Origin: a virus
Length of the DNA stretch: 64,000 bases
Virus record (IMG/VR): IMGVR_UViG_3300032322_002033
Location: 1 to 64,000 of that record
Direction: 5' to 3' (one strand)
The translations under genes were made by a program, and so were the position numbers. The notes under the pieces are model-generated. The model worked only from the letters and a program-made list of their open reading frames with translations, had not been told where the DNA came from and did no database searches. The stretch's first letter is position 1; each line of letters starts with the position of its first letter. This document shows positions 1,973 to 38,525 of this stretch, one piece after another.

Positions 1973-3790
1973 ATGAGTAATGAAAAATTAACAGTATGGC
2001 AAAGGTTATCGCAAACATTTGGACCTAATTCTTTATTAGGACAAGATTACCCGACATACAAATATGACAAACAAGAGCTTTTAAAAACTACTTCAAAACA
2101 AGAGTATGACAAAGAAAAATTACAGGCTCAACAAACATATTATTTGGCTAATCAATGGGCTAAAATAGAAAATAATTTATATACTCAGGCGGTATATTAC
2201 GAACCAACTAGATTATCATCATTTTATGATTATGAATCTATGGAATTTACTCCTGAGATATCTGCGGCGTTAGATATATATTCGGAAGAATCGACTACTG
2301 TAAACCAAGATGGATATATGTTACAGATTTATTCTGAATCTAGACGTATCAAATCAATTATTGCCGATTTATTTAATAACGTATTAGATATCAACACAAA
2401 CTTACCTATGTGGACAAGAAACACATGTAAGTATGGTGATAATTTTGTTTACTTGAAGTTAGACCCTGAAAAAGGTGTTGTTGGGTGTTTGCAATTACCG
2501 ATAATTGAAATTGAAAGATTAGAAGCGGGAATGGGAGCTCACTCAACTGACTCAACAACTGACCCAAAGAAAAAACATTTGAAGTTCAAATGGAAACAAA
2601 AAGATATTGAGTTTAATACGTGGGAAATAGCTCACTTTAGAATTTTAGGTGATGATAGACGATTACCATACGGAACTTCGATGTTAGAGAAGGCTCGTCG
2701 TATATGGAAACAATTATTATTGGCGGAAGATGCTATGTTAATTTATAGAACATCAAGAGCTCCTGAAAGACGTGTATTTAAGGTATTTGTCGGTAACATG
2801 GATGATGCAGATGTTGAACCATATATCCAAAGATTTGCAAATAAATTTAAACGTTCTCAAGTAGTTGACCACAATACAGGTAATGTGGATATGAGATTTA
2901 ACCAAATGGCGGTTGACCAAGATTACTTTGTACCTGTTCGTGACCCTCAACAAGTGTCACCTATTGATACATTAGCAGGTGCTCAAAACCTATCAGAGAT
3001 TGCGGATATTGAGTATATCCAAAAGAAACTATTGGCGGCAATTAGAGTTCCAAAAGCGTTTTTAGGATTTGAAGAAACTGTAGGTGACGGTAAAAATCTA
3101 TCATTACAAGATATACGTTTTGCAAGAACTATTAATAAAATTCAGAAAAGTATGATATCTGAATTAAATAAAATTGCAATTATACACTTGTTTATTTTAG
3201 GTTTTGAGGATGAGTTATCTAATTTCCAATTATCTCTGACAAATCCTTCAACACAAGCCGATTTATTAAGAATTGAAGTTTGGAAAGAAAAAATACTTTT
3301 ATATAAAGATGTTGTTACAGGTGTTGAAGGGATTGCCCCGGCATCAGTGTCTTGGGCTAAGAAACACATTCTTGGTTTTTCTGATGAGGAAATTAAACTT
3401 GATTTACAACAACAAAGAATTGAAAGAGCGGTTGCATCTGAATTAACTAAAACTCCTGAAGTTATTACTCACACAGGTTTATTTGATAACTTAGACAAGT
3501 TATATGGTAAAAAAGAAAATGAACCAGCAGGTGCTGAGGCACCTGCAGGAGAACCAACTGACATGGGAATGGGTTCACCATCTGAACCTGTAGGAGGTCC
3601 GACACCACCAGAGCCAGGTGCTCCTGGAGAAATTCCACCAACAGTACCTGAAGAAGAAAGAAAAGGAAATTTAAATATTTTATTGGAAAATTCTAATGTG
3701 TTTGGGGATGATGAAATTATTGATTTGTCTAAAGCCAAAAATTTCTTAAATGAAATGGAGAAAGAACTTGATAAGTTATTAGATAAGTAA
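1973..3790 (+). CDS. Portal vertex protein (gp20-like)
   Basis: Dodecameric portal through which DNA is packaged, 605 aa against 524 in T4 gp20. The N-terminal third carries the portal signature RLSSFYDYESMEFTPEIS, followed by ALDIYSEEST (residues about 80-107). The centre (LDTLAGAQNLSEIADIEYI, GFEETVGDGKNLSLQDIRF) matches the T4-like portal core. Beyond the core lies a Pro/Gly/Ala/Glu-rich stretch (about 516-558) and then a charged helical tail, which account for the extra length. It lies 42 nt after terminase and just before the prohead genes, as expected for the T4 order. Confidence 0.95.
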   Translation: MSNEKLTVWQRLSQTFGPNSLLGQDYPTYKYDKQELLKTTSKQEYDKEKLQAQQTYYLANQWAKIENNLYTQAVYYEPTRLSSFYDYESMEFTPEISAALDIYSEESTTVNQDGYMLQIYSESRRIKSIIADLFNNVLDINTNLPMWTRNTCKYGDNFVYLKLDPEKGVVGCLQLPIIEIERLEAGMGAHSTDSTTDPKKKHLKFKWKQKDIEFNTWEIAHFRILGDDRRLPYGTSMLEKARRIWKQLLLAEDAMLIYRTSRAPERRVFKVFVGNMDDADVEPYIQRFANKFKRSQVVDHNTGNVDMRFNQMAVDQDYFVPVRDPQQVSPIDTLAGAQNLSEIADIEYIQKKLLAAIRVPKAFLGFEETVGDGKNLSLQDIRFARTINKIQKSMISELNKIAIIHLFILGFEDELSNFQLSLTNPSTQADLLRIEVWKEKILLYKDVVTGVEGIAPASVSWAKKHILGFSDEEIKLDLQQQRIERAVASELTKTPEVITHTGLFDNLDKLYGKKENEPAGAEAPAGEPTDMGMGSPSEPVGGPTPPEPGAPGEIPPTVPEEERKGNLNILLENSNVFGDDEIIDLSKAKNFLNEMEKELDKLLDK

Positions 3791-3812: not shown

Positions 3813-4523
3813 ATGAAATTCGGATTAATTAAAACCCTAATTGAAAATAGATTGGTAGAATCATTCAAAAAGGATGACCTAACAAAGAATATGAAAATAT
3901 TCAAATCAAAATTATTAACAAATAAATCGTTTGTTAGTATGATGAATATTTACGACAATTTAAATGAACATAAGGAATTGGATAAAGAGAGCGCAAATTA
4001 TTTAGTTGATGATTTGTCTAATGAATTTAAATCTATTAAACTTGATGAAAACACAATTAAGTTTATTAAAACTTGGACATCAGGTATTGTAGTTGAAAAC
4101 AAATACTCAGTTATTGATGATTTGTTATATGGTGATAATACTAAACCCGAGAAAAGGTCTATTGCTAGAAAATCAATCGTAGAGTCATTAGGTGAGAAAA
4201 ATATTATTAAAGAGTCTAAAACTCCAAAATTACCAATATCAACTATGTTGAAGGTTGCTAACTCAAACGCTAAGAAATATTTAGACACGTTAACCGAATC
4301 TGAAAAAAAGGAAGTTCTTTCAATAATGGAATTAAAGGATGAAAAATTAACTGAAAGTTTTTCTAAATTAAAAGAAGATACGATTTCTAAAATAGATAAA
4401 CTCATTTCAGAATCTGAAGAAGGACTTAAAGAAACTTTGTCAGATACAAGAGAAAAAATACAAAGTTCAATCCCGACAAAAAAGGAATATATAAAACTTT
4501 TGGAATTAAACAAAAACATTTAA
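3813..4523 (+). CDS. Predicted prohead core/internal protein, helical
   Basis: 236 aa, not recognised as a named family. It is Lys/Glu/Ser-rich and predicted mostly helical, with long charged stretches towards the C-terminus (KLKEDTISKIDKLISESEE). It occupies the place of the small core genes 67 and 68 of T4, between portal and protease. The N-terminus MKFGLIKTLIENRLVES resembles the T4 capsid-targeting sequence, with possible gp21-type sites after LIE and LVE. That suggests it is built into the prohead core and cut during maturation. It has its own TATTTATT element and ends at a strong terminator. Confidence 0.7.
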   Translation: MKFGLIKTLIENRLVESFKKDDLTKNMKIFKSKLLTNKSFVSMMNIYDNLNEHKELDKESANYLVDDLSNEFKSIKLDENTIKFIKTWTSGIVVENKYSVIDDLLYGDNTKPEKRSIARKSIVESLGEKNIIKESKTPKLPISTMLKVANSNAKKYLDTLTESEKKEVLSIMELKDEKLTESFSKLKEDTISKIDKLISESEEGLKETLSDTREKIQSSIPTKKEYIKLLELNKNI

Positions 4524-5093: not shown

Positions 5094-5813
5094 ATGCAAA
5101 ACTATAAGATATTAGGTCCAAATGAATCAGGAAAAGGGGTATTAATTGAAATGGATGCTGGTTATGTTTCCCCAAATGAAGCAAGAAATATTAAAGTACT
5201 TCAGGAAAATAAAAACATAGCTGACTATTCTAAACCTTTTGAGTTTTATGCGGTATTACAAAAATACGATACACCAAATAGAAATGGTAGAATTTATCCT
5301 GAAAGAATATTAAAGAGAGAGGCCGACAATTACATTAAAAATTATATTAATAAGGGAACATCTCTTTCAGAATTAAATCACCCTGAATCGTCTTTAATTG
5401 ACTTAGATAGGGTTTCTCACATTATTACCGAAGTATGGTGGGAAGGGAATGTTTTAATCGGTAAACTTAAATTATTAACATCACCAGGATTCCACGAAAG
5501 AGGGATATGTTCAACTAAAGGAGATTTGGCGGCAAATTACCTAAGACAAGGTGTTACTTTGGGTATATCATCAAGAGGTGTTGGTTCTTTAAAAAAGAAA
5601 GGGGAACAAAATGAAGTTCAAGAAGATTTTGAATTAATTTGTTTTGACTTAGTATCGTCTCCATCTACACCAGGAGCATATCTATTCTCAGATGTTAATG
5701 ACAGATTGAAATTTGAAGAAGATTTGAAAGAAGAACAAGTTGTTAAAAATCAAAGATTAGGTGGTAACTCTATTGATTTAATGAATAAATTAAACGATTA
5801 TTTAGGAAAATAA
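5094..5813 (+). CDS. Prohead core protease (gp21-like)
   Basis: Serine protease of the herpesvirus/HK97/T4 prohead class (Peptidase_S80/gp21 type), 239 aa against 212 in T4. It cuts scaffold, capsid and internal proteins after (L/I)xE before DNA packaging. The core is easy to align with T4 gp21: NRNGRIYPERIL (62-73), the presumed catalytic His in SELNHPE (H96), a WWEGNV strand, LAANYLRQG, and the Ser motif GISSRGVGS (157-165). FDLVSSPS (184-191) supplies an Asp. A 45-residue N-terminal segment precedes the core. It sits between portal and scaffold genes as in T4. Confidence 0.95.
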   Translation: MQNYKILGPNESGKGVLIEMDAGYVSPNEARNIKVLQENKNIADYSKPFEFYAVLQKYDTPNRNGRIYPERILKREADNYIKNYINKGTSLSELNHPESSLIDLDRVSHIITEVWWEGNVLIGKLKLLTSPGFHERGICSTKGDLAANYLRQGVTLGISSRGVGSLKKKGEQNEVQEDFELICFDLVSSPSTPGAYLFSDVNDRLKFEEDLKEEQVVKNQRLGGNSIDLMNKLNDYLGK

Positions 5814-6150: not shown

Positions 6151-7599
6151 ATGAAAAAAGAAAATTTAGTTGAAGAAACAATCTTACAATTACAAAATTT
6201 GGAAGATGTTATCAATGAAAACGCAAAAGAAATACTTGCTTCTACTATGGAGAAAGAAATTAGCGAATTAGTAAAAGAGTCTATGAAAGAAGAGGCTGAT
6301 GATGAAACATTAGAGCAGTCTAATGACACCCCTGAAGAAATGTCTGAACAGGAATCTGATAAAGAATTAGAAATGGATTTGGATGACATGGATGACGATT
6401 CAGAAGAAATTGATATGGACATGATGAATATGGACATGGATGACGATTCAGAAGAAATTGATATGGGCATGATGGACATGGACATAGATGATGATTCTGA
6501 TGAATCTGATATGGGAATGGACATGGACATGGATATGGGTGGAGAAGAAACAATCGACTTAACAGATGCGAGCGATGATGAAATTCTTAAAGTATTTAAA
6601 TCTATGACTGACAACGACTCTATCTCAATCGAAAAAGATGGAGATTATCTTCATTTAACTGATGAAGATGATGAGTACTTAATCCAAACTGAATCTGAAG
6701 AAATGGACGAATCTTGGTCTGAAGAAATGGACGAACAAGAAGAGGACATGGATATGATGGATATGGATGATGAAATGGACATCACAGTTGCTGATGATGA
6801 TTCAGAAGAAATTGTCTATGAAATTGAAATGGATGAAGAAGAAGTTGAAGATGACGAATTTATGAATGAGAACAAACACTTTGCATTTGCAAAAGGCTTT
6901 AAAACTGAAACAAAAGAATCTGCAAAATCAATTAAACCAAAAGTAGGTAATGACGTAACGACTGGAACTCCTAATAAATTTTCATACAAGAAGACTAATA
7001 AAGGATTCAAAGAGGAAATGCCACAAGGCACTAAAGGTGTTGGAATGGGTAAAGCCAAATTTGAATACAAAGAGTCTAAAATGAAAGAACCTAAGAAAGT
7101 TGAAACTAAGGAAGCTGCTAGAACATTAGGTAATGGTAAGAGATGGGGAAGAAAAGGTTTAGACAAACCAAGAAGTGCTCCTCGTCACTTAGCAATTGAA
7201 TCAACGCAGTCTGAACTTGAAATGTTGAGAACAAAAAATGAAGAATACAGAAAATCTTTGAATTTATTTAGAGAAAAACTTAACGAAGTTGCTACATTTA
7301 ATTCAAATTTAGCTTACGCTACAAGATTGTTCACAGAACACTCAACATCTAAACAAGAGAAAATCAACATTCTAAGAAGATTTGATACCGCAGAAACTTT
7401 AAAAGAGTCTAAAGCACTATATAAGCAAATTAAAGACGAATTAACAGGTGAAAAGAAAAAATTTGTTAATGAGTCAATCGAAACAGCAATTGAGAAGACT
7501 CCACAATCAGGTTCAGCAATGAATTTAATTGAGTCTAAGACTTATGAGAACCCTCAATTCTTGAGAATGAAAGACATTATGTCAAAAATAACAAAATAA
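6151..7599 (+). CDS. Prohead core scaffold protein (gp22-like)
   Basis: 482 aa scaffold, longer than T4 gp22 (269 aa). The C-terminal third (LFREKLNEVATFNSNLAYA, RLFTEHST, IKDELTGE) matches the gp22 core region of T4-like phages, including the segment just after a helical KNEEYRKSL stretch. The N-terminal half is extremely acidic, with Asp/Glu/Met runs such as DMDMDMDM and a 16-residue repeat. A basic linker (about 250-340) follows. Several (L/I)xE sites would allow degradation by the gp21-like protease. It precedes the capsid gene by 36 nt without a terminator, so both are co-transcribed. Confidence 0.88.
   Translation: MKKENLVEETILQLQNLEDVINENAKEILASTMEKEISELVKESMKEEADDETLEQSNDTPEEMSEQESDKELEMDLDDMDDDSEEIDMDMMNMDMDDDSEEIDMGMMDMDIDDDSDESDMGMDMDMDMGGEETIDLTDASDDEILKVFKSMTDNDSISIEKDGDYLHLTDEDDEYLIQTESEEMDESWSEEMDEQEEDMDMMDMDDEMDITVADDDSEEIVYEIEMDEEEVEDDEFMNENKHFAFAKGFKTETKESAKSIKPKVGNDVTTGTPNKFSYKKTNKGFKEEMPQGTKGVGMGKAKFEYKESKMKEPKKVETKEAARTLGNGKRWGRKGLDKPRSAPRHLAIESTQSELEMLRTKNEEYRKSLNLFREKLNEVATFNSNLAYATRLFTEHSTSKQEKINILRRFDTAETLKESKALYKQIKDELTGEKKKFVNESIETAIEKTPQSGSAMNLIESKTYENPQFLRMKDIMSKITK
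6391..6534 (+). repeat. 48-bp tandem repeat, 3 copies, in scaffold gene
   Basis: Copies start at 6391, 6439 and 6487, each beginning GATGA(C/T)GATTC and encoding a 16-residue acidic unit like DDDSEEIDMDMMNMDM. The third copy is more diverged. The repeat stays in frame. Confidence 0.85.
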
Positions 7600-7635: not shown

Positions 7636-9495
7636 ATGGGAGCATTATTAGAAAGTGGATTAGTAGGTAACATCGGTCTTAAGCACCTTAAAGTTATCAA
7701 AGAAGACACTATAAACAAATGGGACAAATTAGGGTTCCTAGAAGGTCTACGTGGCCACCTAAAAGAAAATGTAGCTCAGTTGTATGAAAACCAAGCTTCA
7801 TTCTTAATCAACGAATCTTCATCTACAACTGATTCAGGTTCATTCGAAACTGTGGTATTCCCTATCATCAGACGTGTGTTCTCTAAATTGTTAGCGAATG
7901 AAATCGTATCTGTACAAGCTATGAACTTACCAATCGGTAAATTGTTTTACTTTGTACCTCAAATCCAAGGTTATACTGCAGCAACTCCCTCAGTTGCACA
8001 AGGTGAAACTAATGGTCACTACGCACCATTTGGAGCCCCAAATTCAAATGCGACAAGTATTAACGCAGGTTATGAAGGTTCAAATGCTTATGCTAAAAAT
8101 CTTTATGATTTATTCTATGAAGGTAGTGAAGGAGCTTTAGACCCTCCTGGATTGTTTGACTACTCTAAAGGTCGTTTCTACTGGTTATCAGCCGCAACAT
8201 CTACAGTTTCTTGGTCAAATGGTTATATGGTATCTACAAATTTAACTAGTGGTGATGTTTATCGTAAAGTAATCATTGCAATGTCAGGATTCTCTAGCAC
8301 AGGTGCTGGTAAATTAATCGGACCTGACGGACAAGAAATGGATAATGAAGCGTTCTTATCAGATTTGACTTTATTCCCTAACTCAACAATGGTTACTCAA
8401 GTAAACACTGCCGCAGGTGCTACAATTTTAGGTGCAACAACACCTCTTTTATTCCGTGTTGTAACTCAAAAATATGGAAAAGGTATTGTTCAGTATGGTT
8501 CAACAACTACTACGTCATTCCCAGGTACTAACACTGGTGGTGGAAATGGTGGTACTTTCCAAGATTTATGTTCACAAAATGGTGTAATTTATTTGGAAGT
8601 TGACTTACAATTCCCAGCATGTATTTCTTGTGGTCAGTCTAGTCCTGATGGATATACTGGAGCAACTTTAACTGCCGCAGCAATTACTGGTGACACAAAC
8701 GTTATTAGAGCGTTCTATAAGAGATATGAAGAGTTAGAATTTGAAGACAAAATCGGTGAAGTTTCTTTCAATTTGGAGTCTGTAACAGTTTCTGTAACTG
8801 AAAGAAAATTAAGAGCACAATGGTCTCCTGAATTGGCACAAGACGTTGCGGCATTCCACAACATCGACGCTGAGGCTGAATTAACAGCTTTATTGTCTGA
8901 ACAAGTTGCGGCTGAAATTGACCGTGAAATCTTACGTGACTTACGTAAAGGTGCAGCTTGGACATTACGTTGGGATTACAACGGATGGAAGAGACTGAAC
9001 AACCAAGCTACTCCATACACTCAAAAAGACTGGAACCAAACTTTGATTACTGCGATTAACCAAATCTCAGCTCAAATTCACAAGTCTACTTTAAGAGGTG
9101 GAGCTAACTGGATTGTTGTTTCTTCTGAAATCAGTGCTATTTTTGATGACTTGGAATACTTCCACGTATCAAACGCAGCTCCTGAGCAAGACCAATACAA
9201 CATGGGTATTGAAAGAGTAGGAACATTGAGTGGACGTTACCAAGTGTATCGTGACCCATACTTCCCACCAAATACTATCTTGATTGGTCATAAAGGTACA
9301 TCTTTATTGGATACTGGTTACATCTACGCTCCATATGTACCTCTACAATTAACTCCAACTATGTATAACCCATTCAACTTCACACCTATCAAAGGTATCA
9401 TGACACGTTACGCTAAGAAGATGGTTAACAACCGTTTCTATGGACGTATCGTAGTTGATGGAGTTCGTACATTTGACTTGAGAGAATTAAGATAA
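7636..9495 (+). CDS. Major capsid protein (gp23-like)
   Basis: HK97-fold capsid protein, 619 aa (T4 gp23 is 521). The N-terminal region (LGFLEGLRGHLKENVAQLYE) and the block VFPIIRRVFSKLLANEIVS, followed by VQAMNLPIGKLFYF, are typical of T4-like gp23. The C-terminal part (GIERVGTLSGRYQVYRDPYF and GRIVVDGVRTFDLREL) is equally typical. The motif FLINE-S at 57-61 fits the gp21 cleavage rule, so the mature protein probably starts at Ser61, near the T4 site (65/66). An insertion at about 150-350 (Gly/Thr/Ser-rich) explains the extra length. Codon choice differs from the neighbours, with many CGT, AAC, GAC and TTC codons, as expected for the most abundant virion protein. Confidence 0.97.
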   Translation: MGALLESGLVGNIGLKHLKVIKEDTINKWDKLGFLEGLRGHLKENVAQLYENQASFLINESSSTTDSGSFETVVFPIIRRVFSKLLANEIVSVQAMNLPIGKLFYFVPQIQGYTAATPSVAQGETNGHYAPFGAPNSNATSINAGYEGSNAYAKNLYDLFYEGSEGALDPPGLFDYSKGRFYWLSAATSTVSWSNGYMVSTNLTSGDVYRKVIIAMSGFSSTGAGKLIGPDGQEMDNEAFLSDLTLFPNSTMVTQVNTAAGATILGATTPLLFRVVTQKYGKGIVQYGSTTTTSFPGTNTGGGNGGTFQDLCSQNGVIYLEVDLQFPACISCGQSSPDGYTGATLTAAAITGDTNVIRAFYKRYEELEFEDKIGEVSFNLESVTVSVTERKLRAQWSPELAQDVAAFHNIDAEAELTALLSEQVAAEIDREILRDLRKGAAWTLRWDYNGWKRLNNQATPYTQKDWNQTLITAINQISAQIHKSTLRGGANWIVVSSEISAIFDDLEYFHVSNAAPEQDQYNMGIERVGTLSGRYQVYRDPYFPPNTILIGHKGTSLLDTGYIYAPYVPLQLTPTMYNPFNFTPIKGIMTRYAKKMVNNRFYGRIVVDGVRTFDLRELR

Positions 9496-9515: not shown

Positions 9516-9543
9516 AAAAGGTCAGAGAAATCTGACCTTTTTT
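9516..9543. terminator. Bidirectional terminator after the capsid gene
   Basis: Perfect 11-bp stem AAAAGGTCAGA / TCTGACCTTTT (9516-9526 and 9531-9541) capped by a GAAA tetraloop, with A on one side and T on the other. It can end both the capsid transcript and the opposing small gene, whose stop lies in the right arm. Confidence 0.92.
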
Positions 9544-9796
9544 ATTTATTAGTAATTACTCGAATTGACTTGGAGATTGCTTCAGATTCTTCTAATCTAA
9601 AAGCACCTCTTGTATATGCTGATTTAACTGCTTCAATTACACAATATAAAGCTTGGTCATAGTTTAAATTAGAAATAAATCTATCTAAATCATCATAGTT
9701 TGAGTATTGAATTGAATCAAACAACTCTCCAATTGGGGATATTTTATTTAATTCATTATTAATATCTTGTTTTAATTTTTCTGCGTCATTTTCCAT
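9542..9796 (-). CDS. Hypothetical protein
   Basis: 84 aa, unrecognised. It is acidic and helical, with IQYSNYDDLDRFI followed by SNLNYDQALYCVIEAV and a C-terminal SKSIRVITNK. It faces the capsid gene tail-to-tail and shares its bidirectional terminator. Its start faces the next + strand gene across a 37-bp divergent gap. No function can be assigned. Confidence 0.65.
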   Translation of the reverse strand: MENDAEKLKQDINNELNKISPIGELFDSIQYSNYDDLDRFISNLNYDQALYCVIEAVKSAYTRGAFRLEESEAISKSIRVITNK

Positions 9797-9833: not shown

Positions 9834-10787
9834 ATGAGTAATAGAAAAGAAATATTGGAAATCATTAAATTAATGGAAGATTATAATTCTGTTAATGAAT
9901 CAACAAGTGACTCATCAGGAAGTAGAGGTTCATACGTTGCTCCAATAATGCCGGGGTTTAGAAAGTTTAAAAAAACTCAATTGGCTCCGTTTAATACTCG
10001 AGTATCAAAATATGATGATTCTGAATTAGCGTATGATAGTTATGATGGTGAAATGGATACCCCAAAATCTGAAATACAAAAAATAGAAAAAAAGGCTAAA
10101 AAAATATCTAATTACGTTGCAAAACATTTTGTCGCTAACGATGAGGATGGGGATATTATGAATAACAATCCAATTTTTAAAAATAAAAATAAAAATATTT
10201 CTAAACCATTTGTTAGTGAATCAGATAGTACAATTACCGCTGGTGAGTATACTGGACCAATAGAAATTGGATTAAAAAAATGGAGAAAACAAGAATTAGG
10301 ACCCTTTACTGAATTTTCAAAACACCCTGTAAATAAAACAAAAAAACAAAAAACTTTAAAAAATAACATTAAAAAAATAGTAGGTGTTTGGGAAAAACAT
10401 CATGAAGATGGGTATGAAATACCTACTCATGACGCACATTCAATTAATGAAGATTTAGGCGTTTGGTTTGGAACTAAGAAAAAACCTAAGGGTAGTAAAC
10501 AACCAAAAGGTCCATGGGTTAACATTTGTAGGAAAGTTGACGGTAAACACCCACCTTGTGGTAGACCTGACGCTTCTGATAAAGCATATCCAAAATGTAG
10601 AGCCGCAGGTGTTGCGGGTAAAATGTCCGATTCACAAAAAAAGGCTGCATGTGCTCAAAAAAGAAGGGCTGAAAAATCAAACCCAAAAAGTGGTACGGGA
10701 AATAAACCAAAAATGGTATCTTACAAACCTAAGAAAAAAACTAATGAATCAATCATCATTAGTTTAATTAGAAAAGCAATAAATTAA
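9834..10787 (+). CDS. Predicted virion internal protein with duplicated motif and Cys/Lys-rich tail
   Basis: 317 aa. The N-terminus (EILEIIKLMEDYNSVNES) looks like a capsid-targeting sequence, with possible protease sites after LME and VNE. Residues about 33-55 (GSYVAPIMPGFRKFKKTQL) and 138-160 (GEYTGPIEIGLKKWRKQEL) are copies of one unit ending L(A/G)PF. The C-terminal domain begins LGVWFGTKKKPKG and contains NICRKVDGKHPPCGRP, KAYPKCRAAGVAGKM and KKAACAQKRR. It resembles small basic Cys-containing phage domains (DUF6321-like, from memory) that may bind DNA or metal. The stop codon overlaps the convergent next gene by 4 nt. Confidence 0.75.
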   Translation: MSNRKEILEIIKLMEDYNSVNESTSDSSGSRGSYVAPIMPGFRKFKKTQLAPFNTRVSKYDDSELAYDSYDGEMDTPKSEIQKIEKKAKKISNYVAKHFVANDEDGDIMNNNPIFKNKNKNISKPFVSESDSTITAGEYTGPIEIGLKKWRKQELGPFTEFSKHPVNKTKKQKTLKNNIKKIVGVWEKHHEDGYEIPTHDAHSINEDLGVWFGTKKKPKGSKQPKGPWVNICRKVDGKHPPCGRPDASDKAYPKCRAAGVAGKMSDSQKKAACAQKRRAEKSNPKSGTGNKPKMVSYKPKKKTNESIIISLIRKAIN

Positions 10788-10975
10788 TCTTCTCTTTTAT
10801 ATTTTGTAACGGGGAAGTTAGAATTTAATTCATTAAGTGCACTTACGTACTCATCACCATATTCACCAATTCTACTTATTACATCATCACAAAACATTCT
10901 TCTTTCGAACATTGTGTATTTTGCAAAACTCTCTTTAAGATGTTTTTTAACTATTTTAGATAATTCCTTGCTCAT
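10784..10975 (-). CDS. Small protein with capsid-targeting-like N-terminus
   Basis: 63 aa from ATG at 10975. An upstream GTG at 11002 is in frame, but it is part of the TATTTATA element, so I prefer the ATG. MSKELSKIVKKHLKESF is an amphipathic helix ending in LKE-S, which fits the gp21 rule. The rest (FERRMFCDDVISRIGEYGDEY) is not recognised. It overlaps the upstream gene by 20 nt and the convergent gene by 4 nt. Confidence 0.65.
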   Translation of the reverse strand: MSKELSKIVKKHLKESFAKYTMFERRMFCDDVISRIGEYGDEYVSALNELNSNFPVTKYKRED

Positions 10976-11378
10976 TTTCTGATATTTTATTATAAATATC
11001 ACTTAATGAATCTTTTATCTGTAAAATCATCTCAGTATCATACATTTCACCTCTTTTTTCCAACTCATTTTCAAATGAATTAGTTAGTTTTCTTTCATTA
11101 TTAGGGGTTAATTTGATTTCATATGAATATCTATGATTGGCAACTGACAATATGTTATCGCAAATCACCATATAGACCCCCAATTTTTCATTTTTAATGT
11201 AGTACTTAACACTTTTAGGGGTGTAGACTAAAATGGACGAATTATCCCTTATTAATGACTTTGCAACCTGAACGCAAAGGGATTCATATTTCTTTTGTTC
11301 GACAATGTGGTTAGGTCGACTGATTGAGTTTCTTAGGAAAATTCTAAGTTTGTAGTACTGTTTCTTAATTGGGTTCAT
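10956..11378 (-). CDS. Hypothetical protein
   Basis: 140 aa, unrecognised. The basic N-terminus (NPIKKQYYKLRIFLR) is followed by predicted strands (SSILVYTPKSVKYYIKNEK, LGVYMVICDN, YSYEIKLTP) and an acidic C-terminal helix. The mixed alpha/beta pattern suggests a small globular protein. It is preceded by a host-type promoter rather than a TATTTAT element, so it may be expressed early. Confidence 0.65.
   Translation of the reverse strand: MNPIKKQYYKLRIFLRNSISRPNHIVEQKKYESLCVQVAKSLIRDNSSILVYTPKSVKYYIKNEKLGVYMVICDNILSVANHRYSYEIKLTPNNERKLTNSFENELEKRGEMYDTEMILQIKDSLSDIYNKISENEQGII
10991..10998 (-). promoter_or_regulatory. TATTTATA element (putative late promoter)
   Basis: Minus-strand TATTTATA, 15 nt before the ATG at 10975, inside the end of the upstream gene. 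The spacing matches the main class. Confidence 0.5.
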
Positions 11379-11397
11379 ATTATTGATGAATATGAAA

Positions 11398-11427
11398 CAA
11401 AGATAATCAAAAAACTAATACTAACAA
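11398..11427 (-). promoter_or_regulatory. Bacteroidota-type promoter (TTG-N19-TATCTTTG)
   Basis: On the minus strand TATCTTTG (11405 to 11398) is an exact TAnnTTTG -7 box. A TTG (11427-11425) lies 19 nt upstream as a -33 element. The ATG at 11378 follows 19 nt later. This is the known primary-sigma promoter pattern of Bacteroidota. A chance match in AT-rich DNA is possible. Confidence 0.45.
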
Positions 11428-11435
11428 TAAGGTTG

Positions 11436-11924
11436 TTAAGATTTAATAAACAATTTAATAAAGGATACCCAAGTTTCTAAATCGTTTTCATTCCTACCAA
11501 TATTCGCAGAATAACAAGTGAGAACTACATTATCTTTTGTATAACCTTTGTCCCTATCTAATCTATCTAATGATGGTTGTTGTGGATGTTTTGATTTATC
11601 TGATGGGACTAAAGGAGTTTTAAACCAATAACATAATCCATTTTGTCTCTCAAACATCTCGTTAATGTCCTCAACTGTTAATGTGTTTTCTATATTTCTG
11701 TGTTTTGAATCATTAATTAAAGTATTTTGCCAAAGCCTAACTCTTCTTTCTTTTTGTTTTTTCCCTTCAGTTTTTCTAAACTCAGAATCTTTCCTTTTTT
11801 GTCTTTTGTATTCTCTTGTTACATTAAGGACACATAATTTGCATTTTGTCCCTCTTTGTGATTTGTAAAAATCATCTTTATTTTTTGTTTTACCGCAAAT
11901 ACTACAAGTTTTATGTATTTCCAT
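11436..11924 (-). CDS. HNH endonuclease (free-standing homing type)
   Basis: 162 aa from the ATG at 11924. An in-frame ATG at 11948 would add 8 residues, but a TATTTATA element lies between the two. The N-terminal zinc-ribbon-like part has C7-x2-C10 and C28-x2-C31, followed by a very basic helix. The C-terminal nuclease part reads NGLCYWFKTPL, then SLDRLDRDKGYTKDNVVLTC and YSANIGRN, the His/Asn/Asn-type core of phage HNH enzymes where DR.D..KGYT.DN is conserved. A role in DNA cutting and gene spread is usual for the family. It is flanked by unrelated small genes. Confidence 0.85.
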   Translation of the reverse strand: MEIHKTCSICGKTKNKDDFYKSQRGTKCKLCVLNVTREYKRQKRKDSEFRKTEGKKQKERRVRLWQNTLINDSKHRNIENTLTVEDINEMFERQNGLCYWFKTPLVPSDKSKHPQQPSLDRLDRDKGYTKDNVVLTCYSANIGRNENDLETWVSFIKLFIKS

Positions 11925-11927
11925 ATA

Positions 11928-11935
11928 TATAAATA
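11928..11935 (-). promoter_or_regulatory. TATTTATA element before HNH gene
   Basis: Minus-strand TATTTATA, 3 nt before the ATG at 11924 and just after the terminator of the previous gene. Same short-spacing class as the terminase site. Confidence 0.35.
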
Positions 11936-11960
11936 TATGGGTATACATAAAAATACAAAA

Positions 11961-11986
11961 AAAAAGAAGAATTATTTCTTCTTTTT
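11961..11986 (-). terminator. Terminator overlapping a stop codon
   Basis: Perfect 11-bp stem (11961-11971 with 11976-11986), loop TTAT. On the minus strand it is followed by more T. The stem includes the poly-Lys end and stop codon of the 11972-12475 gene, an economical coding/terminator overlap. Confidence 0.75.
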
Positions 11987-12475
11987 AGAACCACAATACG
12001 GAGGGGAACATCTTTTTTTACCATCTAATCCTGGCATTCTACCTTGACATACTTGAACTCCGTAACCATTCGAATAAGCTGAGGGGTGTACTTTAAATTT
12101 AGATTTTGCGGCGGCATAACCACGAGAACAAAGTTTTGTGCCGGCCTTTTTACGACCTTCATTCATTTGGTATAGGGCTAATGCTTTGTCAGGGTCTTTT
12201 TCGGTCATTGCTAAATCGTCGATAATATTATCATCTTCCATCATATCACCACCTTGTGTTTCATTCATTATGAAATCAAAAACTTGGTCCATGTTGTTCT
12301 TTGCTTCCGCAATATGGTCTTGAGCCCAATCATGTCCATCAGATAAAATTCCCTCAACCATATTACGGTCTAAATCTAACAATAAGTCACATTGTCTTCT
12401 CATTTGTTCTAAATTACTGAAAAACATATATCTTTCAGATTCTTCTTTTAAAATTTTTTTAATTAATTTTTCCAT
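11972..12475 (-). CDS. Predicted virion internal protein with Cys/Lys-rich tail
   Basis: 167 aa, three parts. Residues 1-11 (MEKLIKKILKE) form an amphipathic helix ending LKE, like a T4 capsid-targeting sequence. The acidic middle (DWAQDHIAEAKNNMDQVFDF) resembles a helical segment I recall from many phage proteins. The C-terminal part (KKAGTKLCSRGYAAAKSKF, PSAYSNGYGVQVCQGRMPG, KKRCSPPYCGSKKKK) is basic with five Cys and may bind metal or DNA. It lies 4 nt after the next upstream gene in the same transcript. Function unknown. Confidence 0.72.
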   Translation of the reverse strand: MEKLIKKILKEESERYMFFSNLEQMRRQCDLLLDLDRNMVEGILSDGHDWAQDHIAEAKNNMDQVFDFIMNETQGGDMMEDDNIIDDLAMTEKDPDKALALYQMNEGRKKAGTKLCSRGYAAAKSKFKVHPSAYSNGYGVQVCQGRMPGLDGKKRCSPPYCGSKKKK

Positions 12476-12479
12476 ATTA

Positions 12480-12983
12480 TTAAGTCATTAAATCACCTTT
12501 TAAGTCATTACATACAATACTTAGAAACGATTCGATTTCATGTTCTAATCCTTCGTATGTTTCAAATAAGTTTACACTTTCATCAGATTCGAAATTACAT
12601 AAAGAATAATTTCCTTCATTATCACAGTAAATTTCACCATAAAATTGGTCATTATTAACTGCTAAATATCCTGTATGAATTATCTCGTCAATATTCTCTT
12701 CTGTTGTCTCATACTGGAATTCCATTTTTGGTATACCTGGTACACCATCAAAAACCCAAGTTTCACCTGAAGGAACTCTGTCTAGTGATGTTATTAATTC
12801 TTCATCATCTAAATAACCACCTGTCTTTGCGTGGTAGTCCAAATATTCCATTTCTTTTTTTGAAAGTTTCTCAATACCGACTTGATTTATCTTATCCAAA
12901 ATTGAGTCAATTTTTTCTTGACTCTCATTCACCACACGTTTGACAATATTAAGAATTTGTTCTTCAGTTATTATTATTTTCAT
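12480..12983 (-). CDS. Predicted internal protein with DUF6576-like segment
   Basis: 167 aa. The start MKIIITEEQILNIVKRVVNE-S is an amphipathic helix of the capsid-targeting type. Residues 24-50 (KIDSILDKINQVGIEKLSKK, then EMEYLD) resemble DUF6576, a short helical motif at the end of Bacteroidota rhomboid proteins. The remaining acidic domain (GYLAVNNDQFYGEIYCDNEG) is unrecognised. Its start overlaps the stop of the large upstream gene by 4 nt (ATGA), so translation is probably coupled. Confidence 0.68.
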   Translation of the reverse strand: MKIIITEEQILNIVKRVVNESQEKIDSILDKINQVGIEKLSKKEMEYLDYHAKTGGYLDDEELITSLDRVPSGETWVFDGVPGIPKMEFQYETTEENIDEIIHTGYLAVNNDQFYGEIYCDNEGNYSLCNFESDESVNLFETYEGLEHEIESFLSIVCNDLKGDLMT

Positions 12984-18547: not shown

Positions 18548-19285
18548 TTATTCAGATGGTGGCTCTAATAATGAAGTATATATTTTTTTATACTTTTTAA
18601 TTGCAACTCTGATTTCTTTTGTTGACATATTTGTCATTTCTCTTAATGACAAAAGAATAACATTTTTATTAAATTTATTGTTATCAGTTGCAGGAAATAT
18701 AGTTTCGTAGTTTTCAAATATATCATGTAATGCAACCCCAAGTTTCATTTCATTCTCATTTAAATCATCCGTTTCAATTGTATCTTTAATATATGATTGT
18801 AAAATTGGGATTATGTTAACTTCTTCTTTCTCTTCCAAATCTAAGTGATATACCATATTTGGATTATTTTCCAAATCTGAGGATATATCCTCGTAAGATA
18901 TTTTTCTATTTTGTTCTTTTTGGTCTTTTAAAATTTGACCCATTAAATAATTTTTACATATTGTACCAAAATACGAATATGCCTTTTTTTCTTTGGATGG
19001 ACTAAACTTATCAATCTTAGTCATTAGAAATGAATGAGTATCGGTGTGTAACTCGATAAAATCCATATCTTTTCTATATAATTTATATCTTCTTATAATT
19101 GAAGATATCATTTTATCCAAAGGGTGTCTTAAAAAATCATTATAAATCTTGTTCTTCTCATCAAAAGTAGTTGCGGTCAGGTAACACCTAACCGCAATCT
19201 CTTCTCGTGTGTCAAAATAGTTTTCAGAACCGGCTTTTTTTACTTTTTTTGAGCCAGAGCTTTCTGATTTTGCACTTAATATCAT
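18548..19285 (-). CDS. Late-transcription sigma factor (gp55-like)
   Basis: 245 aa. Residues about 58-125 fit a sigma region 2: DKMISSIIRRYKLYRKDMDF, then a helix TDTHSFLMTKIDKFSPSK and KKAYSYFGTICKNYLMGQIL followed by KDQKEQNRK. In T4-like gp55 proteins the equivalent reads NF.P....AFGYC..I....F..RI..E.K.Q. T4 gp55 (185 aa) directs host RNA polymerase to the -10-only late promoter with gp33 and gp45. The longer C-terminus contains another helix-rich segment (NKNVILLSLREMTNMSTKEI) that resembles a helix-turn-helix. It lies between glycosyltransferase genes and baseplate genes. Confidence 0.75.
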   Translation of the reverse strand: MILSAKSESSGSKKVKKAGSENYFDTREEIAVRCYLTATTFDEKNKIYNDFLRHPLDKMISSIIRRYKLYRKDMDFIELHTDTHSFLMTKIDKFSPSKEKKAYSYFGTICKNYLMGQILKDQKEQNRKISYEDISSDLENNPNMVYHLDLEEKEEVNIIPILQSYIKDTIETDDLNENEMKLGVALHDIFENYETIFPATDNNKFNKNVILLSLREMTNMSTKEIRVAIKKYKKIYTSLLEPPSE

Positions 19286-20091
19286 TAAACATTTGATTCA
19301 TCATATTTTATGTTTCTATCATTTGAGAAAAAATATTCTTTTTTGGCGGTAGAAACCCAAAACCTAACTTCATCTTCTGACATTTTCTTACTTCCATTCT
19401 TGTACTCCCAAAAAAGTGAATCTGGTCTCAAATTGATATGCTTATATCCAATCTTTGGAATTGTCATTATTTTTACAGAGTTGTATGTCATTCTCAATAA
19501 AAACTCATAACCAAATGTTAATTTGAAACTTGATTTAAATCCTCCGAAGTCTTCCAAGATTGACTTTTTAATTAATATTCCTGATGTTTGAAAGTTTTGA
19601 TAATTTAACAAAGTTTCATTAGTTAAATAACCAATTTCTTGTGTGAAGTTTGCGGCAAATGTTGCCTCGTTTGTAAACCCTGCAAATACTGACTTATTAT
19701 CAACATCAACAACAATAGGTAAAAATGCATCGACTTCAGGATAGAATTCAGAATATTTTAAAACATTCTTAAACCAAATTTGAGAATATTCATCGTCAAA
19801 TTCAAAAAATGAAACCCATTCAGAAGTTGCATTTTTAATACCTAAATTTATTTGTTCAGTATAATTAGGTTCAGAATCAAATTTAATTTTTTTAACATTT
19901 AATTCCCCAAAATTAAATCCATCCAAATAACTAGTTAAACTTTCTTCATTAGAATGGACAATAATAAGTTCATTAAATGTGACTTGTTGATTTTGTAATG
20001 ATTGAATTGCTTTCTCAAAATACTCATCAAATTCTCTCACAAGATTTGATTTAATTGGTAAAATGACACTTAAATTAATTTTATTTTCCAT
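19285..20091 (-). CDS. Glycosyltransferase family 2-like
   Basis: 268 aa GT-A enzyme. NLSVILPIKSNLVREFDEYF opens the fold, followed by TEQINLGIKNATSEWVSFFE and a metal-binding type FDDE. FGGFKSSFKLTFGYEFLLRM corresponds to the acceptor-side region of GT2. It transfers a sugar from a nucleotide donor, specificity unknown. Its stop shares one base with the start of the sigma gene, tying the glycan cluster to the late regulator transcript. Confidence 0.82.
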   Translation of the reverse strand: MENKINLSVILPIKSNLVREFDEYFEKAIQSLQNQQVTFNELIIVHSNEESLTSYLDGFNFGELNVKKIKFDSEPNYTEQINLGIKNATSEWVSFFEFDDEYSQIWFKNVLKYSEFYPEVDAFLPIVVDVDNKSVFAGFTNEATFAANFTQEIGYLTNETLLNYQNFQTSGILIKKSILEDFGGFKSSFKLTFGYEFLLRMTYNSVKIMTIPKIGYKHINLRPDSLFWEYKNGSKKMSEDEVRFWVSTAKKEYFFSNDRNIKYDESNV

Positions 20092-20092
20092 A

Positions 20093-21154
20093 TTATTGTT
20101 CTGTTGTTTGTGCGTGTTTATCTAATTCAGATTTAAAATTTTCTATTCTTAAATTAAAGTAACCTTGAAATAAATTACTAATATTTTCATCAAATTTAGT
20201 TCTATCTGAATATTCATTTGGAGTTGATTCCATGTTAGAATATAATTCCACAGAAATATTGTCCTCTAACCAATTCTGAATATAATCGGCGATTATGTCA
20301 GTTAATTTAATTACATCCTGTATCCATATACCATTATTTTCATTAATCCAATCTGGTAACAAATTAGGTAGTTTACCAATAACAGGTACTCCACACATCA
20401 TAGACTCTAATGGGAAGGTACCAAATGATGATGTATCGTCTAACCATACTGATACCATAGAATCTTGTAATTGAGTTGCAAATTCTTTTTGAGACAAGTT
20501 TCTTAAATCTCTAAATCTAACCCATCTGTATTGTGGATATTTTTGATAAAAAGTTTTAATTAGATTCATAGTATCTCTTTGGTCTCTTGAGTGAACTGAC
20601 ACTATTGGTTTAACAGGTAACTCTGACTTTGTAAAAATATTGTCAATAACAGGTGGTAATACATCGTAAGAAACTGCTCTCATTATTGAAGATACATGGT
20701 CTTTTAATTTGTTTCCTGTGATAATACATTTTGTGAATCCCATATCTGACCATGATTGACCTGGTTGTAAAGTTTCAAAAATATGGTCATATGCTTGACA
20801 CAAAACAATTTTACCACATGGTAAATTAGAAATTTGAGACATAACATACCCAAATATTTCAGGTACAATAATAAAATCTTCAGGGGATACTTCTAAATTT
20901 TGACCCTCAACAGGTTGATGTGGTAATGTCATAAACTCTTCACCCAACCAATTTTGAACACCAAAATAGTCAGGTTTTTCGTGTAAAATTATGGTGTTAA
21001 ATCCTGATTTTTTTAATGACATAGCCATGTCATAAGTGTGTTTAATTGATGCTCTTGGGTTACCCTTTGTATCTTGTACAAAGAAATAAATTCGAGATTT
21101 TTTCTCTTTTAAATTTTCTACCGAAATTTCAATTTTTCTAATAATTTCTTGCAT
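20093..21154 (-). CDS. Glycosyltransferase, GT-B fold (group 1-like)
   Basis: 353 aa. The C-terminal nucleotide-sugar site is recognisable as SSFGTFPLESMMCGVPVIGK, the E-x7-E-like region of GT4 enzymes. The N-terminal half (GNPRASIKHTYDMAMSLKKS) is the usual acceptor domain with the glycine-containing first loop. Spacing to the downstream gene is 1 nt. No membrane segment, so a soluble cytoplasmic enzyme. Confidence 0.82.
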   Translation of the reverse strand: MQEIIRKIEISVENLKEKKSRIYFFVQDTKGNPRASIKHTYDMAMSLKKSGFNTIILHEKPDYFGVQNWLGEEFMTLPHQPVEGQNLEVSPEDFIIVPEIFGYVMSQISNLPCGKIVLCQAYDHIFETLQPGQSWSDMGFTKCIITGNKLKDHVSSIMRAVSYDVLPPVIDNIFTKSELPVKPIVSVHSRDQRDTMNLIKTFYQKYPQYRWVRFRDLRNLSQKEFATQLQDSMVSVWLDDTSSFGTFPLESMMCGVPVIGKLPNLLPDWINENNGIWIQDVIKLTDIIADYIQNWLEDNISVELYSNMESTPNEYSDRTKFDENISNLFQGYFNLRIENFKSELDKHAQTTEQ

Positions 21155-21155
21155 T

Positions 21156-21419
21156 TTAGTATTTTTGGATTATTTTATTATTAAGTAATGTATTAAAGGC
21201 AATTTTAAAAGGAATACTTGTTGACGATTTTTCACCTAAAGTTTCGTCAATATCTTCTCTTTCGGTTATGATTGTCTCAATCATCATTTTAACAAGTTCG
21301 TATCTAACAACACTTATGTGTTGTTCAGTTGAGCCAGAAGTGTCTTTTACATCTAAATTAACGTATTTATTTATTTCTTCTAAATCGAAATAATAATGGT
21401 CATTAAATAATTTTAGCAT
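21156..21419 (-). CDS. Hypothetical protein
   Basis: 87 aa. DHYYFDLEEINKYVNLDVKD, then VRYELVKMMIETIITEREDI and IPFKIAFNTLLNNKII. The pattern of short FDLE start, VRYELVK helix and FNTLL end is one I have seen in small T4-like phage proteins of unknown function. It overlaps the HAD-like gene by 17 nt. Confidence 0.65.
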   Translation of the reverse strand: MLKLFNDHYYFDLEEINKYVNLDVKDTSGSTEQHISVVRYELVKMMIETIITEREDIDETLGEKSSTSIPFKIAFNTLLNNKIIQKY

Positions 21420-22053
21420 TTATTTTATCTTTTAATTCTGTTATTGAATTTATTGTAATAGTATGGTCAACATCATTATTATAATCAGTATTGTACTTAA
21501 TAATTGTTGATTTATTTCTATAATTAATAATTGTATCAGGGTTAGAAGTAACTATTAAATCAAAAGAACTTAATAAATGATTTTTAGTTTTTTCATTATA
21601 AAAATGAATACTCTCAATTAAACACCCAAATTTTGATAAGAAAAATAATGTTGCGGGTTTTGATTTACCAATTTCATCTGAGATTATACAAATTTCATAA
21701 TTTTCTCTTAAATCAATATATAAATTATTAAGTATTTGAAATGTATTCATTTCAGATGAAGGGGAATGACCAAATATTTCCATTGCGAATTCTTCATACA
21801 TAAAAGAAAATTGTTCTTCTTTATTTTGAAATGAGAAATGTTCATCTAAATTCAAACTAGTTACAGGTAGGTTCATAGAATAATTAAATGGTTCAGGATG
21901 AACATCTATTTCAGTATTACCTGACATATCAATCTGATACGTATCAATTGTAAAATTGTCCTCAGAGTTATCTATAAAATTTTTTTGATATACCTGAGTT
22001 ATTTTACCAATAGTGTCTCGTAAAACCCCATTAACATCAATCCCTATCTTCAT
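21403..22053 (-). CDS. HAD-like (deoxy)nucleotidase-type protein
   Basis: 216 aa. The first motif is IGIDVNGVLRDT, where HAD phosphatases have DxDGxxRD. The second Asp, the general acid, is Asn here. IISDE could be motif II (S/T), SKPATLFFLSKFG holds a Lys for motif III, and SFDLIVTSNPDTI fits the acidic motif IV. The layout resembles phage 5'(3')-deoxyribonucleotidases. With Asn in motif I it may be catalytically weak or act by binding only. Overlaps PhoH gene by 17 nt. Confidence 0.7.
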   Translation of the reverse strand: MKIGIDVNGVLRDTIGKITQVYQKNFIDNSEDNFTIDTYQIDMSGNTEIDVHPEPFNYSMNLPVTSLNLDEHFSFQNKEEQFSFMYEEFAMEIFGHSPSSEMNTFQILNNLYIDLRENYEICIISDEIGKSKPATLFFLSKFGCLIESIHFYNEKTKNHLLSSFDLIVTSNPDTIINYRNKSTIIKYNTDYNNDVDHTITINSITELKDKINAKII

Positions 22054-23641: not shown

Positions 23642-23720
23642 AATATTATATTTCTAATTGTTTATTAATCCCGTCTTGTCATAATAAATGGTTTAACTAT
23701 TAAAATAAAATCTCCAATTT

Positions 23721-24269
23721 TTATAATTTTTTAATATTAGTGATACAAAAAGTTGGACATCCATCATTTGTTAGATAATTTATTTTTAAATCTTTATTTT
23801 GACAAAATTCATTAACCGCTTGTACAACACCTGGAAATTTATCTGAAGTATAATCGTGACCACAAATTAATCCACCATTTTTTGTCTTTAGAAAAGATAC
23901 TGATAAATCTGACTTAACCCCTTCATAACTATGGTCACCGTCAATATAAATTAAATCAAAATAATTATCATCAAATTTATTTAGAACATCTAAACTTTTA
24001 TTTTTGTGTATTATTACACTACTATCATTTGAAAAATAATCAACTAATTTATAATATTCTTCGTTTAGATTAGTCCATATAATATTATTACCGTCTTTAT
24101 CTCCAGAACATCCATTACCTTCAAAAATATCAATTAAATGCAACTCTGAAGGGCTTAAATTTTCTTTTATGAACTTTGAAAATTCCCCTTGGAATACTCC
24201 TATTTCACATATTATTGTGTTTTTATCAAATGATTTGAGTAAATCATTCCTAGTATTAAAATTAATCAT
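23721..24269 (-). CDS. Class I SAM-dependent methyltransferase
   Basis: 182 aa. CEIGVFQGEFSKFI is the SAM-binding motif I (E-x-G-x-x-x-G), LHLIDIFEG places the ribose-binding acid, FDLIYIDGDHSYEGVKSDL and GGLICGHDY are the Methyltransf_24 signature. Probably O-methylates a sugar on the growing glycan. The 79 bp upstream hold no recognisable signal, and it overlaps the downstream stop by 4 nt. Confidence 0.85.
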   Translation of the reverse strand: MINFNTRNDLLKSFDKNTIICEIGVFQGEFSKFIKENLSPSELHLIDIFEGNGCSGDKDGNNIIWTNLNEEYYKLVDYFSNDSSVIIHKNKSLDVLNKFDDNYFDLIYIDGDHSYEGVKSDLSVSFLKTKNGGLICGHDYTSDKFPGVVQAVNEFCQNKDLKINYLTNDGCPTFCITNIKKL

Positions 24270-24997: not shown

Positions 24998-25004
24998 ATT
25001 AGTA

Positions 25005-25616: not shown

Positions 25617-25624
25617 TATTTATT

Positions 25625-38161: not shown

Positions 38162-38525
38162 ATACTTTAAGACCTACCATTCCCTTATCGTCAGGGTTAT
38201 ATTTTGGTCTAATTTCATTAAATTTATCTTTAGGGTCAATTGAATAGTTACCTATTCTATCTACTCTAAATAATCTCCACCCAGGTAATGGTTGTTCACC
38301 TTTACTTGCGGTGAAAGATGCTCCCTCACGTTCCCAAGCTCTAATAACTTTATTCCCCCTCTTTGATGTACCATAACAAAAAGGTTCAATAGTTCTTAAT
38401 CCCTTCCCACCATTATCCTCACCATTATAATAAATGGTTACAGGATTACGGTTCTTGATGGACTGAATTATAGTATCAGAACTCTTCTCAAGAATAATTT
38501 GTTTGATTAGATTGTAAAGCTTCAT
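38133..38525 (-). CDS. WYL-like domain protein with capsid-targeting-like start
   Basis: 130 aa. Residues 20-95 resemble a WYL domain: IKNRNPVTIYYNGEDN, GLRTIEPFCYGTSKRGN, VIRAWEREG and GWRLFRVDRIGNYSI. WYL domains sense nucleic acids or nucleotides in bacterial regulators, often in defence loci. Here it stands alone without a helix-turn-helix. The first 14 residues (MKLYNLIKQIILEK) form an amphipathic helix with LxE and resemble the T4 internal-protein leader. Confidence 0.72.
   Translation of the reverse strand: MKLYNLIKQIILEKSSDTIIQSIKNRNPVTIYYNGEDNGGKGLRTIEPFCYGTSKRGNKVIRAWEREGASFTASKGEQPLPGWRLFRVDRIGNYSIDPKDKFNEIRPKYNPDDKGMVGLKVCAKFDEEYE

What the first reader, a model, noticed from the sequence alone, without database searches (positions are those of the whole stretch)
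9834..12983. Cluster of small proteins with T4-internal-protein-like N-terminal leaders
Four adjacent genes after the capsid gene begin with a short amphipathic helix ending in (L/V)xE: EILEIIKLMED, MSKELSKIVKKHLKES, MEKLIKKILKEE and TEEQILNIVKRVVNES. Two more carry it elsewhere (3813-4523 and 38133-38525). In T4, internal proteins IPI-III and Alt carry a leader of this type that targets them to the prohead core, and gp21 removes it after (L/I)xE. The genome also encodes gp21. These would then be head-packed proteins injected with the DNA, an effector set not obvious from homology.
Basis: partly seen in the sequence, partly recalled or inferred. Interest (0 to 1): 0.8.

Follow-up and report, generated by a model that had tools for sequence, protein, structure and literature searches.

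The report
Head-targeting leaders tag phage cargo proteins
A T4-like virus of bacteria, and the larger relatives compared here, put a short removable tag on the front of many unrelated proteins; the tag ends in the cut signal of the virus's own head protease, so these proteins are probably packed into the head and may be delivered into the next host cell.

Summary
The quoted strings are real. By pattern alone they are barely above chance in this genome, but comparison makes a strong case. In 27 relatives of 11972-12475 the leaders differ (short helix or MKKIIRLTESDLTRIVKRVIKE type), yet the glutamate ending them is invariant, as is a second, internal one. 9834-10787 looks like a polyprotein: of four invariant columns in 29 relatives, two are glutamates at domain borders. 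The gp23 propeptide ends LINE|A/S; conserved hydrophobic-x-E sites also occur in gp21, the gp22-like scaffold and the gp67/68-position protein. A residue-blind screen finds 7 such sites with Glu, 0-2 with any other residue tested. About 60 proteins in five related contigs carry such leaders on largely unrelated mature parts; conserved borders also precede an Fe/Mn superoxide dismutase and a WYL-like protein. Best reading: a T4-type capsid-targeting and gp21-maturation system with a new leader family and large cargo set. Packaging is inferred; injection is untested. Corrections: the N-terminal site of 3813-4523 is not conserved, the site in 9834-10787 is VNE|S rather than LME|D, and the genes are not strictly adjacent.

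The parts
9834..9899 (+). Leader of the polyprotein, residues 1-22, ending VNE|S (predicted cleavage after codon 9897-9899)
   Evidence: E22 invariant in 29 relatives; hydrophobic P3 in all unique contexts; low-confidence segment 18-36 after helix 3-17 in the model
9900..10220 (+). Polyprotein domain A (residues 23-129), ends VSE|S
   Evidence: Domain A starts shortly after hydrophobic-x-E in 42/42 unique contexts
10221..10451 (+). Polyprotein domain B (residues 130-206), ends INE|D
   Evidence: Domain B starts shortly after hydrophobic-x-E in 27/27 unique contexts, including near-N-terminal copies such as L044; E206 invariant
10452..10787 (+). Basic Cys-containing domain (GPWVNICRK...HPPCGR, phrog_23735), net charge +20, plus a short C-terminal helical tail
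   Evidence: Border hydrophobic-x-E|D in 36/38 unique contexts; copies near the N-terminus in G001 and L031 start at the same border
10784..10975 (-). 63-aa protein; leader MSKELSKIVKKHLKE (10931-10975), border LKE|S
   Evidence: Relatives carry different leaders (...HLRE|G; MRTRITESEINRIVKKIVLE|D) before the same mature part; only 3-4 relatives
10956..11378 (-). Leaderless conserved gene inside the cluster; in-cluster negative control
   Evidence: 44 relatives, no E site found in the residue-blind screen
12443..12475 (-). Leader MEKLIKKILKE of 11972-12475
   Evidence: E11 invariant in 27 relatives although leaders differ in sequence and length
12158..12442 (-). Acidic helical fragment (residues 12-106, net charge -17), ends MNE|G
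   Evidence: E106 invariant in 27; hydrophobic-x-E in 34/34 unique contexts, variable sequence before it; helical model 16-74, low confidence at 97-115
11972..12157 (-). Basic C-terminal fragment GRKKAGTKLC... (phrog_27331), net charge +15, with stop codon
12924..12983 (-). Leader MKIIITEEQILNIVKRVVNE of 12480-12983 (window member of the LTESDL-type leader family)
   Evidence: Leader HMM 29.4 bits; Pfam DUF6576 match begins at residue 20, the predicted cleavage point
12480..12923 (-). Mature part with a DUF6576 match
   Evidence: Pfam 3e-9
38487..38525 (-). Leader MKLYNLIKQIILE of the WYL-like protein 38133-38525
   Evidence: Hydrophobic-x-Glu leader end in 5/5 genomes with differing P2 (LIVE|A, LITE|A, IINE|I, LICE|I); WYL match 3e-4, just under Pfam's cut-off
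7636..9495 (+). Major capsid protein gp23; propeptide 7636-7815 ends LINE|S
   Evidence: Pfam Gp23 5e-73; LINE|[AS] in all relatives
5094..5813 (+). gp21-type prohead protease (S77); likely self-cleavage site VLQE|N at residue 38
   Evidence: Pfam 5e-25; invariant Glu in 34 unique contexts
6151..7599 (+). gp22-like acidic scaffold (by position); conserved site FVNE|S at residue 441
   Evidence: 58 unique contexts, Glu and hydrophobic P3 both 1.0
3813..4523 (+). Protein at the gp67/gp68 position; N-terminal leader not conserved at P1, internal site TLTE|S at residue 162 conserved

Best explanation
The leaders are capsid-targeting propeptides of a T4-type head. Proteins that carry one join the prohead core; the phage's own gp21 protease then cuts after hydrophobic-x-Glu, removes the leader and, in the polyprotein 9834-10787 and in 11972-12475, also cuts at internal borders, leaving mature domains in the head with the DNA. 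Shown by sequence comparison: conserved borders, replaceable leaders, leaders shared by unrelated mature parts, and the same site signature in gp23, gp22-like, gp21 and gp67-position proteins. Inferred: actual packaging and cleavage. Inferred with less confidence: ejection into the host on infection.
For: (a) gp23 relatives all keep LINE|[AS]. (b) A1: 27 relatives of 11972-12475 have leaders that do not align as one sequence but invariant E11 and E106. (c) A2: at 32% mean identity only four columns are invariant in 29 relatives, and two of them (E22, E206) are predicted cut residues. (d) At the borders before KLC, PCGR, domain A and domain B, hydrophobic-x-E occurs in 34/34, 36/38, 42/42 and 27/27 unique contexts, with P2 and P4-P12 variable. 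(e) Domains found inside the polyprotein in one phage start at the same border near an N-terminus in another. (f) Screen of 26 families for an invariant residue after hydrophobic-x in variable context: E 7 sites, other residues 0-2; six of the seven lie in gp21, the gp22-like scaffold, the gp67-position protein, 11972 and 9834 (two). Repeat over 57 genes with orthologs in the larger contigs: E 5, others 0-2. (g) About 60 leader proteins in five contigs; 67 hits fall into 49 mature clusters, against 7 decoys. (h) A DNA pattern covering only the LTESDLxRIV part retrieved 85 unique N-terminal proteins; the unselected Glu follows at the fixed place in 78 of 83, and 5 of the others have a 4-residue insertion that still ends in hydrophobic-x-E. 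(i) S77 protease is in 15 of 20 large leader-bearing contigs against 2 of 9 unselected large contigs; the 5 without it also lack gp23. T4 gp21 specificity L/I-X-E and CTS function: PMC9026906, PMC9958956.
Against: No virion proteomics or cleavage data for this clade were found in the sources held. P1' of LTESDL leaders is mostly Q/N, while gp23 and gp22-like sites have A/S. In the gp67-position family the N-terminal site is not conserved. Motif counts in this one genome are not significant alone. Structure models have low confidence (pLDDT 53 and 60). Leader-bearing contigs were sampled from one collection, and the S77 control is small. Relatives share ancestry, so counts of unique contexts are not independent events.
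Confidence: 0.78

Rival explanations
1. The conserved cluster proteins (9834, 11972 families) are structural prohead-core or DNA-condensing head proteins, processed by gp21 like T4 gp67/gp68/gp22, and are not injected effectors.
For: Near-universal next to gp23 in relatives (63 and 47 hits), unlike the variable T4 internal proteins; mature fragments strongly basic (+15, +20) or acidic (-17).
Against: Does not account for the many variable leader-tagged proteins elsewhere in relatives, nor for a superoxide dismutase and a WYL-like protein with the same kind of border.
Confidence: 0.4
2. The leader is a docking tag for another phage structure (tail, baseplate, an intracellular compartment) and the conserved Glu is part of the docking motif, not a protease site.
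For: One leader-tagged protein has a peptidoglycan-binding, endolysin-like end; P1' differs from gp23 sites.
Against: The same hydrophobic-x-E signature sits at internal domain borders of 9834 and 11972 and in gp21, gp22-like and gp23, which a docking helix does not explain.
Confidence: 0.12
3. Coincidence: short amphipathic N-terminal helices with a Glu are common in AT-rich phage genomes.
For: Loose motif occurs in 33% of N-termini here against 23% of interior windows.
Against: Invariant Glu at borders across relatives, residue-specific screens, near-identical leaders on unrelated proteins.
Confidence: 0.03

Closest known systems
T4 capsid targeting sequence (CTS) and internal proteins IPI-III, Alt
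   Same: Short N-terminal leader ending in a gp21 motif, on mature parts unlike each other, in a phage with gp21, gp23 and a gp22-like scaffold (PMC9026906, PMC3012670)
   Different: Leader sequences of other types (KLIKKILKE or LTESDLxRIVKRVIKE); polyprotein cargo; tens of tagged proteins in the largest relative instead of four; some cargo genes are conserved core genes
Propeptides of inner-head and ejection proteins in phiKZ-like giant phages (SPN3US, 201phi2-1)
   Same: Several head proteins with propeptides removed by a prohead protease after x-E motifs; ejected proteins (PMC5694885)
   Different: There several propeptides are over 100 residues and reported sites are of the AxE/SxE type; here they are about 10-25 residues with hydrophobic-x-E
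T4 gp67/gp68/gp22 core proteins
   Same: Cut at several internal gp21 sites (PMC9026906)
   Different: Here conserved domains lie between the sites and are shuffled among relatives
Chlorovirus PBCV-1 packaged Cu/Zn superoxide dismutase
   Same: A virion-packaged superoxide dismutase is known in another virus (PMC7019647)
   Different: Here an Fe/Mn-type enzyme in a tailed phage, packaging only predicted

Membership tests
T4-type prohead maturation system | S77 protease gp21 encoded in the head module next to gp23 | tested here: met
   Pfam S77 5e-25, Gp23 5e-73
T4-type prohead maturation system | gp23 propeptide ending in (L/I)xE | tested here: met
   LINE|[AS] in all relatives
T4 CTS / internal-protein type cargo | Short N-terminal leader ending in the gp21 motif, conserved at P1 and P3 | tested here: met
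   Met for 9834, 11972, 12480 families; 10784 and 38133 with few relatives; not met for the 3813 N-terminus
T4 CTS / internal-protein type cargo | One leader type on unrelated mature proteins | tested here: met
   67 hits in 49 mature clusters; 81 proteins in 62 clusters
T4 CTS / internal-protein type cargo | Leader sequence homologous to T4 CTS | not tested
   No T4 leader was aligned here; the leaders are short and vary within the clade itself
T4 CTS / internal-protein type cargo | Protein found in the mature head, N-terminus processed | not testable with these tools
   Needs virion mass spectrometry
T4 CTS / internal-protein type cargo | Mature protein injected into the host | not testable with these tools
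   Needs a delivery assay
phiKZ-like ejection proteins | Mostly long propeptides cut by a diverged protease after S/A-x-E type sites | tested here: not met
   Leaders about 10-25 aa, P3 hydrophobic

The most novel reading that the evidence does not exclude
In a widespread, mostly uncultured clade of large T4-like phages, a short leader family acts as a general head-import tag for dozens of unrelated proteins per phage, including polyproteins and enzymes such as superoxide dismutase, which are trimmed by gp21 and delivered with the DNA: a large predicted injected protein set that can be read from sequence.
Probability: 0.45. Interest if true: 0.85.

Novelty: new variant of a known kind. Interest (0 to 1): 0.68.

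Why it matters
If right, head-packed cargo can be predicted from sequence in uncultured phages, turning many 'hypothetical' N-terminally tagged proteins into testable early-infection proteins. It also gives a leader family to test as a packaging tag outside T4, and a predicted head-packed Fe/Mn superoxide dismutase.

Tried and rejected
Loose hydrophobic-x-E counts over whole proteomes: only 1.3x enriched, not decisive. tblastn of the LTESDL leader against phage isolates: no match. tblastn of the polyprotein against isolates: no match. Search for virion proteomics of the nearest Flavobacterium isolate (immuto): the paper read does not mention that phage or mass spectrometry. Literature search for the leader strings in the held library: none. 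AlphaFold models of A1 and A2 were too uncertain for a fold search, which was left out. N-terminal site of 3813-4523 rejected as a conserved cleavage site. LME|D in 9834 rejected in favour of VNE|S. Pfam on 20 leader-tagged proteins mostly found nothing. The leader HMM list includes a few likely false hits, so 'about 60' is used rather than 67-69. The first control pattern for the S77 base rate gave too few contigs and was replaced.

Full report
What the window is. The window is bases 1-64000 of a 94,074-base virus record. Gene order is that of a T4-like head module: gp17 (188-1930), portal (1973-3790), a protein at the gp67/gp68 position (3813-4523), gp21 protease (5094-5813; Pfam S77 5e-25), a gp22-like acidic scaffold (6151-7599) and gp23 (7636-9495; Pfam 5e-73). 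gp17, portal and scaffold are named here from sequence and position. All capsid-gene hits in phage isolates were below 60% identity. Eighty relatives came from IMG/VR, and four larger relatives were read nearly or fully (296, 229, 120 and 99 kb).

The observation. All quoted leader strings exist. The genes are not strictly adjacent: 10956-11378 and the HNH gene 11436-11948 lie between leader-bearing genes and carry no leader, 9542-9796 lies between gp23 and 9834, and 9834 is on the opposite strand to the others. Counting motifs in this genome alone does not establish the case: a helix + xE rule hits 6% of N-termini against 2.6% of interior windows (p = 0.09), though the same rule gives 13% in the 296-kb relative (p = 7e-15) and 9% in the 229-kb one (3e-8). 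The bare hydrophobic-x-E motif is only 1.3 times enriched.

Conservation makes the case. All gp23 relatives keep the propeptide end LINE|A or S, which sets the protease signature for this clade and agrees with T4 gp21's L/I-X-E (PMC9026906). In 27 relatives of 11972-12475 the leader is either a short helix (MEKLIKKILKE, MRNIDSLIRKVIKE) or a longer one (MKKVVKLTESDLSRIVKRVLNE, MKTVKLTESDLNRIVKKVLTE). These do not align as one sequence, yet the glutamate that ends them is invariant, and so is E106 before the basic domain GRKKAGTKLC. The relatives of 9834-10787 share only four invariant columns at 32% mean identity: E22, P37, P52, E206. E22 ends the leader and E206 precedes the basic domain DLGVWFG...HPPCGR. 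Between them, domain B begins after VSE, IKE, INE, VNE and the like in 27 of 27 unique contexts. In some relatives a domain that is internal here lies near the N-terminus and begins at the same border (L044 for domain B, L031 and G001 for the basic domain). Column statistics at these borders show Glu at 100%, hydrophobic P3, and variable P2 and P4-P12. This fits a protease recognising hydrophobic-x-E, and so 9834-10787 is best read as a polyprotein.

Residue-blind screens. Across 26 families I looked for columns with an invariant residue, hydrophobic two before it, and little conservation around. Glu gives 7 such columns; D gives 2 and K, R, N, Q, S, T, G, A, H give 0 or 1. The seven are in the gp22-like scaffold, 9834 (two), gp21 itself, 11972, the gp67-position protein, and a gene family found upstream of gp17 in the 296-kb relative. 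Several of these are the proteins T4 gp21 is known to cut (gp22, gp67/68, itself; PMC9026906, PMC9958956). A second screen over 57 genes with orthologs in the larger contigs gave Glu 5, others 0-2, and added the superoxide dismutase.

A leader family with many cargoes. A profile built from LTESDL-type leaders finds 69 N-termini in five contigs against 7 decoys. The 67 above 9 bits fall into 49 clusters by their mature parts. A few are probably false, so about 60 is a fair number; 43 of the 69 are in the 296-kb relative. The terminal Glu, which was not part of the pattern, is there in 78 of 83, with I, L, V or M at P3, and five others have a four-residue insertion that still ends hydrophobic-x-E. 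Their mature parts form 62 clusters. The S77 protease occurs in 15 of 20 large leader-bearing contigs, while the five without it also lack gp23 and so probably lack the head module; in 9 unselected large contigs it occurs in 2. This control is small.

Cargo. Recognisable mature parts include DUF6576 in 12480-12983, whose Pfam match starts at the predicted cut, a WYL-like domain just under the cut-off (38133-38525), an Fe/Mn superoxide dismutase at 65862-66569 of the record, outside the window, with FLTE|M, LITE|M, FIME|M, IISE|I, VVTE|A borders in five genomes, a DHH/SET protein and an endolysin-like protein in relatives. Most have no known domain. A superoxide dismutase packaged in a virion is known from chloroviruses (PMC7019647), of a different enzyme class.

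Mechanism. In T4 the CTS takes internal proteins into the core, gp21 removes it, and the mature proteins leave with the DNA (PMC9026906, PMC3012670). I infer the same path here. What is shown is the conserved sequence logic; packaging, cleavage and injection are not shown. Points against: P1' of LTESDL leaders is mostly Q or N rather than A or S; the N-terminal site of 3813-4523 is not conserved, its conserved site being internal; no proteomics of this clade was found in the sources held.

Effectors or structure? The 9834 and 11972 families are near-universal beside gp23 and would release strongly basic pieces (+20 and +15) and one acidic piece (-17), so a structural or DNA-condensing role is as likely as an effector role. 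The variable tagged proteins in relatives are better effector candidates.

Novelty. The principle, a cleavable head-targeting leader, is that of T4, and its use as a general way to load proteins has been suggested for T4-like phages (PMC9026906). New here are the leader families, the polyprotein organisation, and the size and variety of the predicted cargo. I file it as a new variant of a known kind.

Noticed in passing
record 65862-66569 (L082:5862-6569), outside the window: Fe/Mn superoxide dismutase (Pfam Sod_Fe_C 3e-38, Sod_Fe_N 1e-22) with a conserved hydrophobic-x-E border before the enzyme domain; in some relatives the predicted protein is about 510 aa.
   Followed up: partly
window 37541-40099: Second cluster with possible sites: 37541-38161 has several xE motifs (SVSE|S, LVSE|T, VLSE|N), and 39209-40099 was picked by the residue-blind screen at residue 154.
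   Followed up: partly
window 19285-36280 and 45249-50267: Many genes that look like glycosyltransferases, methyltransferases and sugar-modifying enzymes, judged by eye from translations only.
   Followed up: no
window 11436-11948: HNH/endonuclease VII-like gene inside the leader cluster, with only 9 hits among the relatives; probably mobile.
   Followed up: no
G002 216449-218695 (L114:16449-18695): 748-aa leader-tagged protein with DHH-like and SET-domain matches.
   Followed up: partly
G001, several places (e.g. 166712-167158, 238754-242671): Twelve-member paralog cluster, mostly with MKIIITESQYK-type leaders, partly in tandem.
   Followed up: no
L122 2712-4012 (Flavobacterium phage immuto): Two neighbouring proteins share another leader-like start (FxLxxFLxENKLTxNxxxLxE), suggesting further leader types in Bacteroidota T4-like phages.
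   Followed up: no
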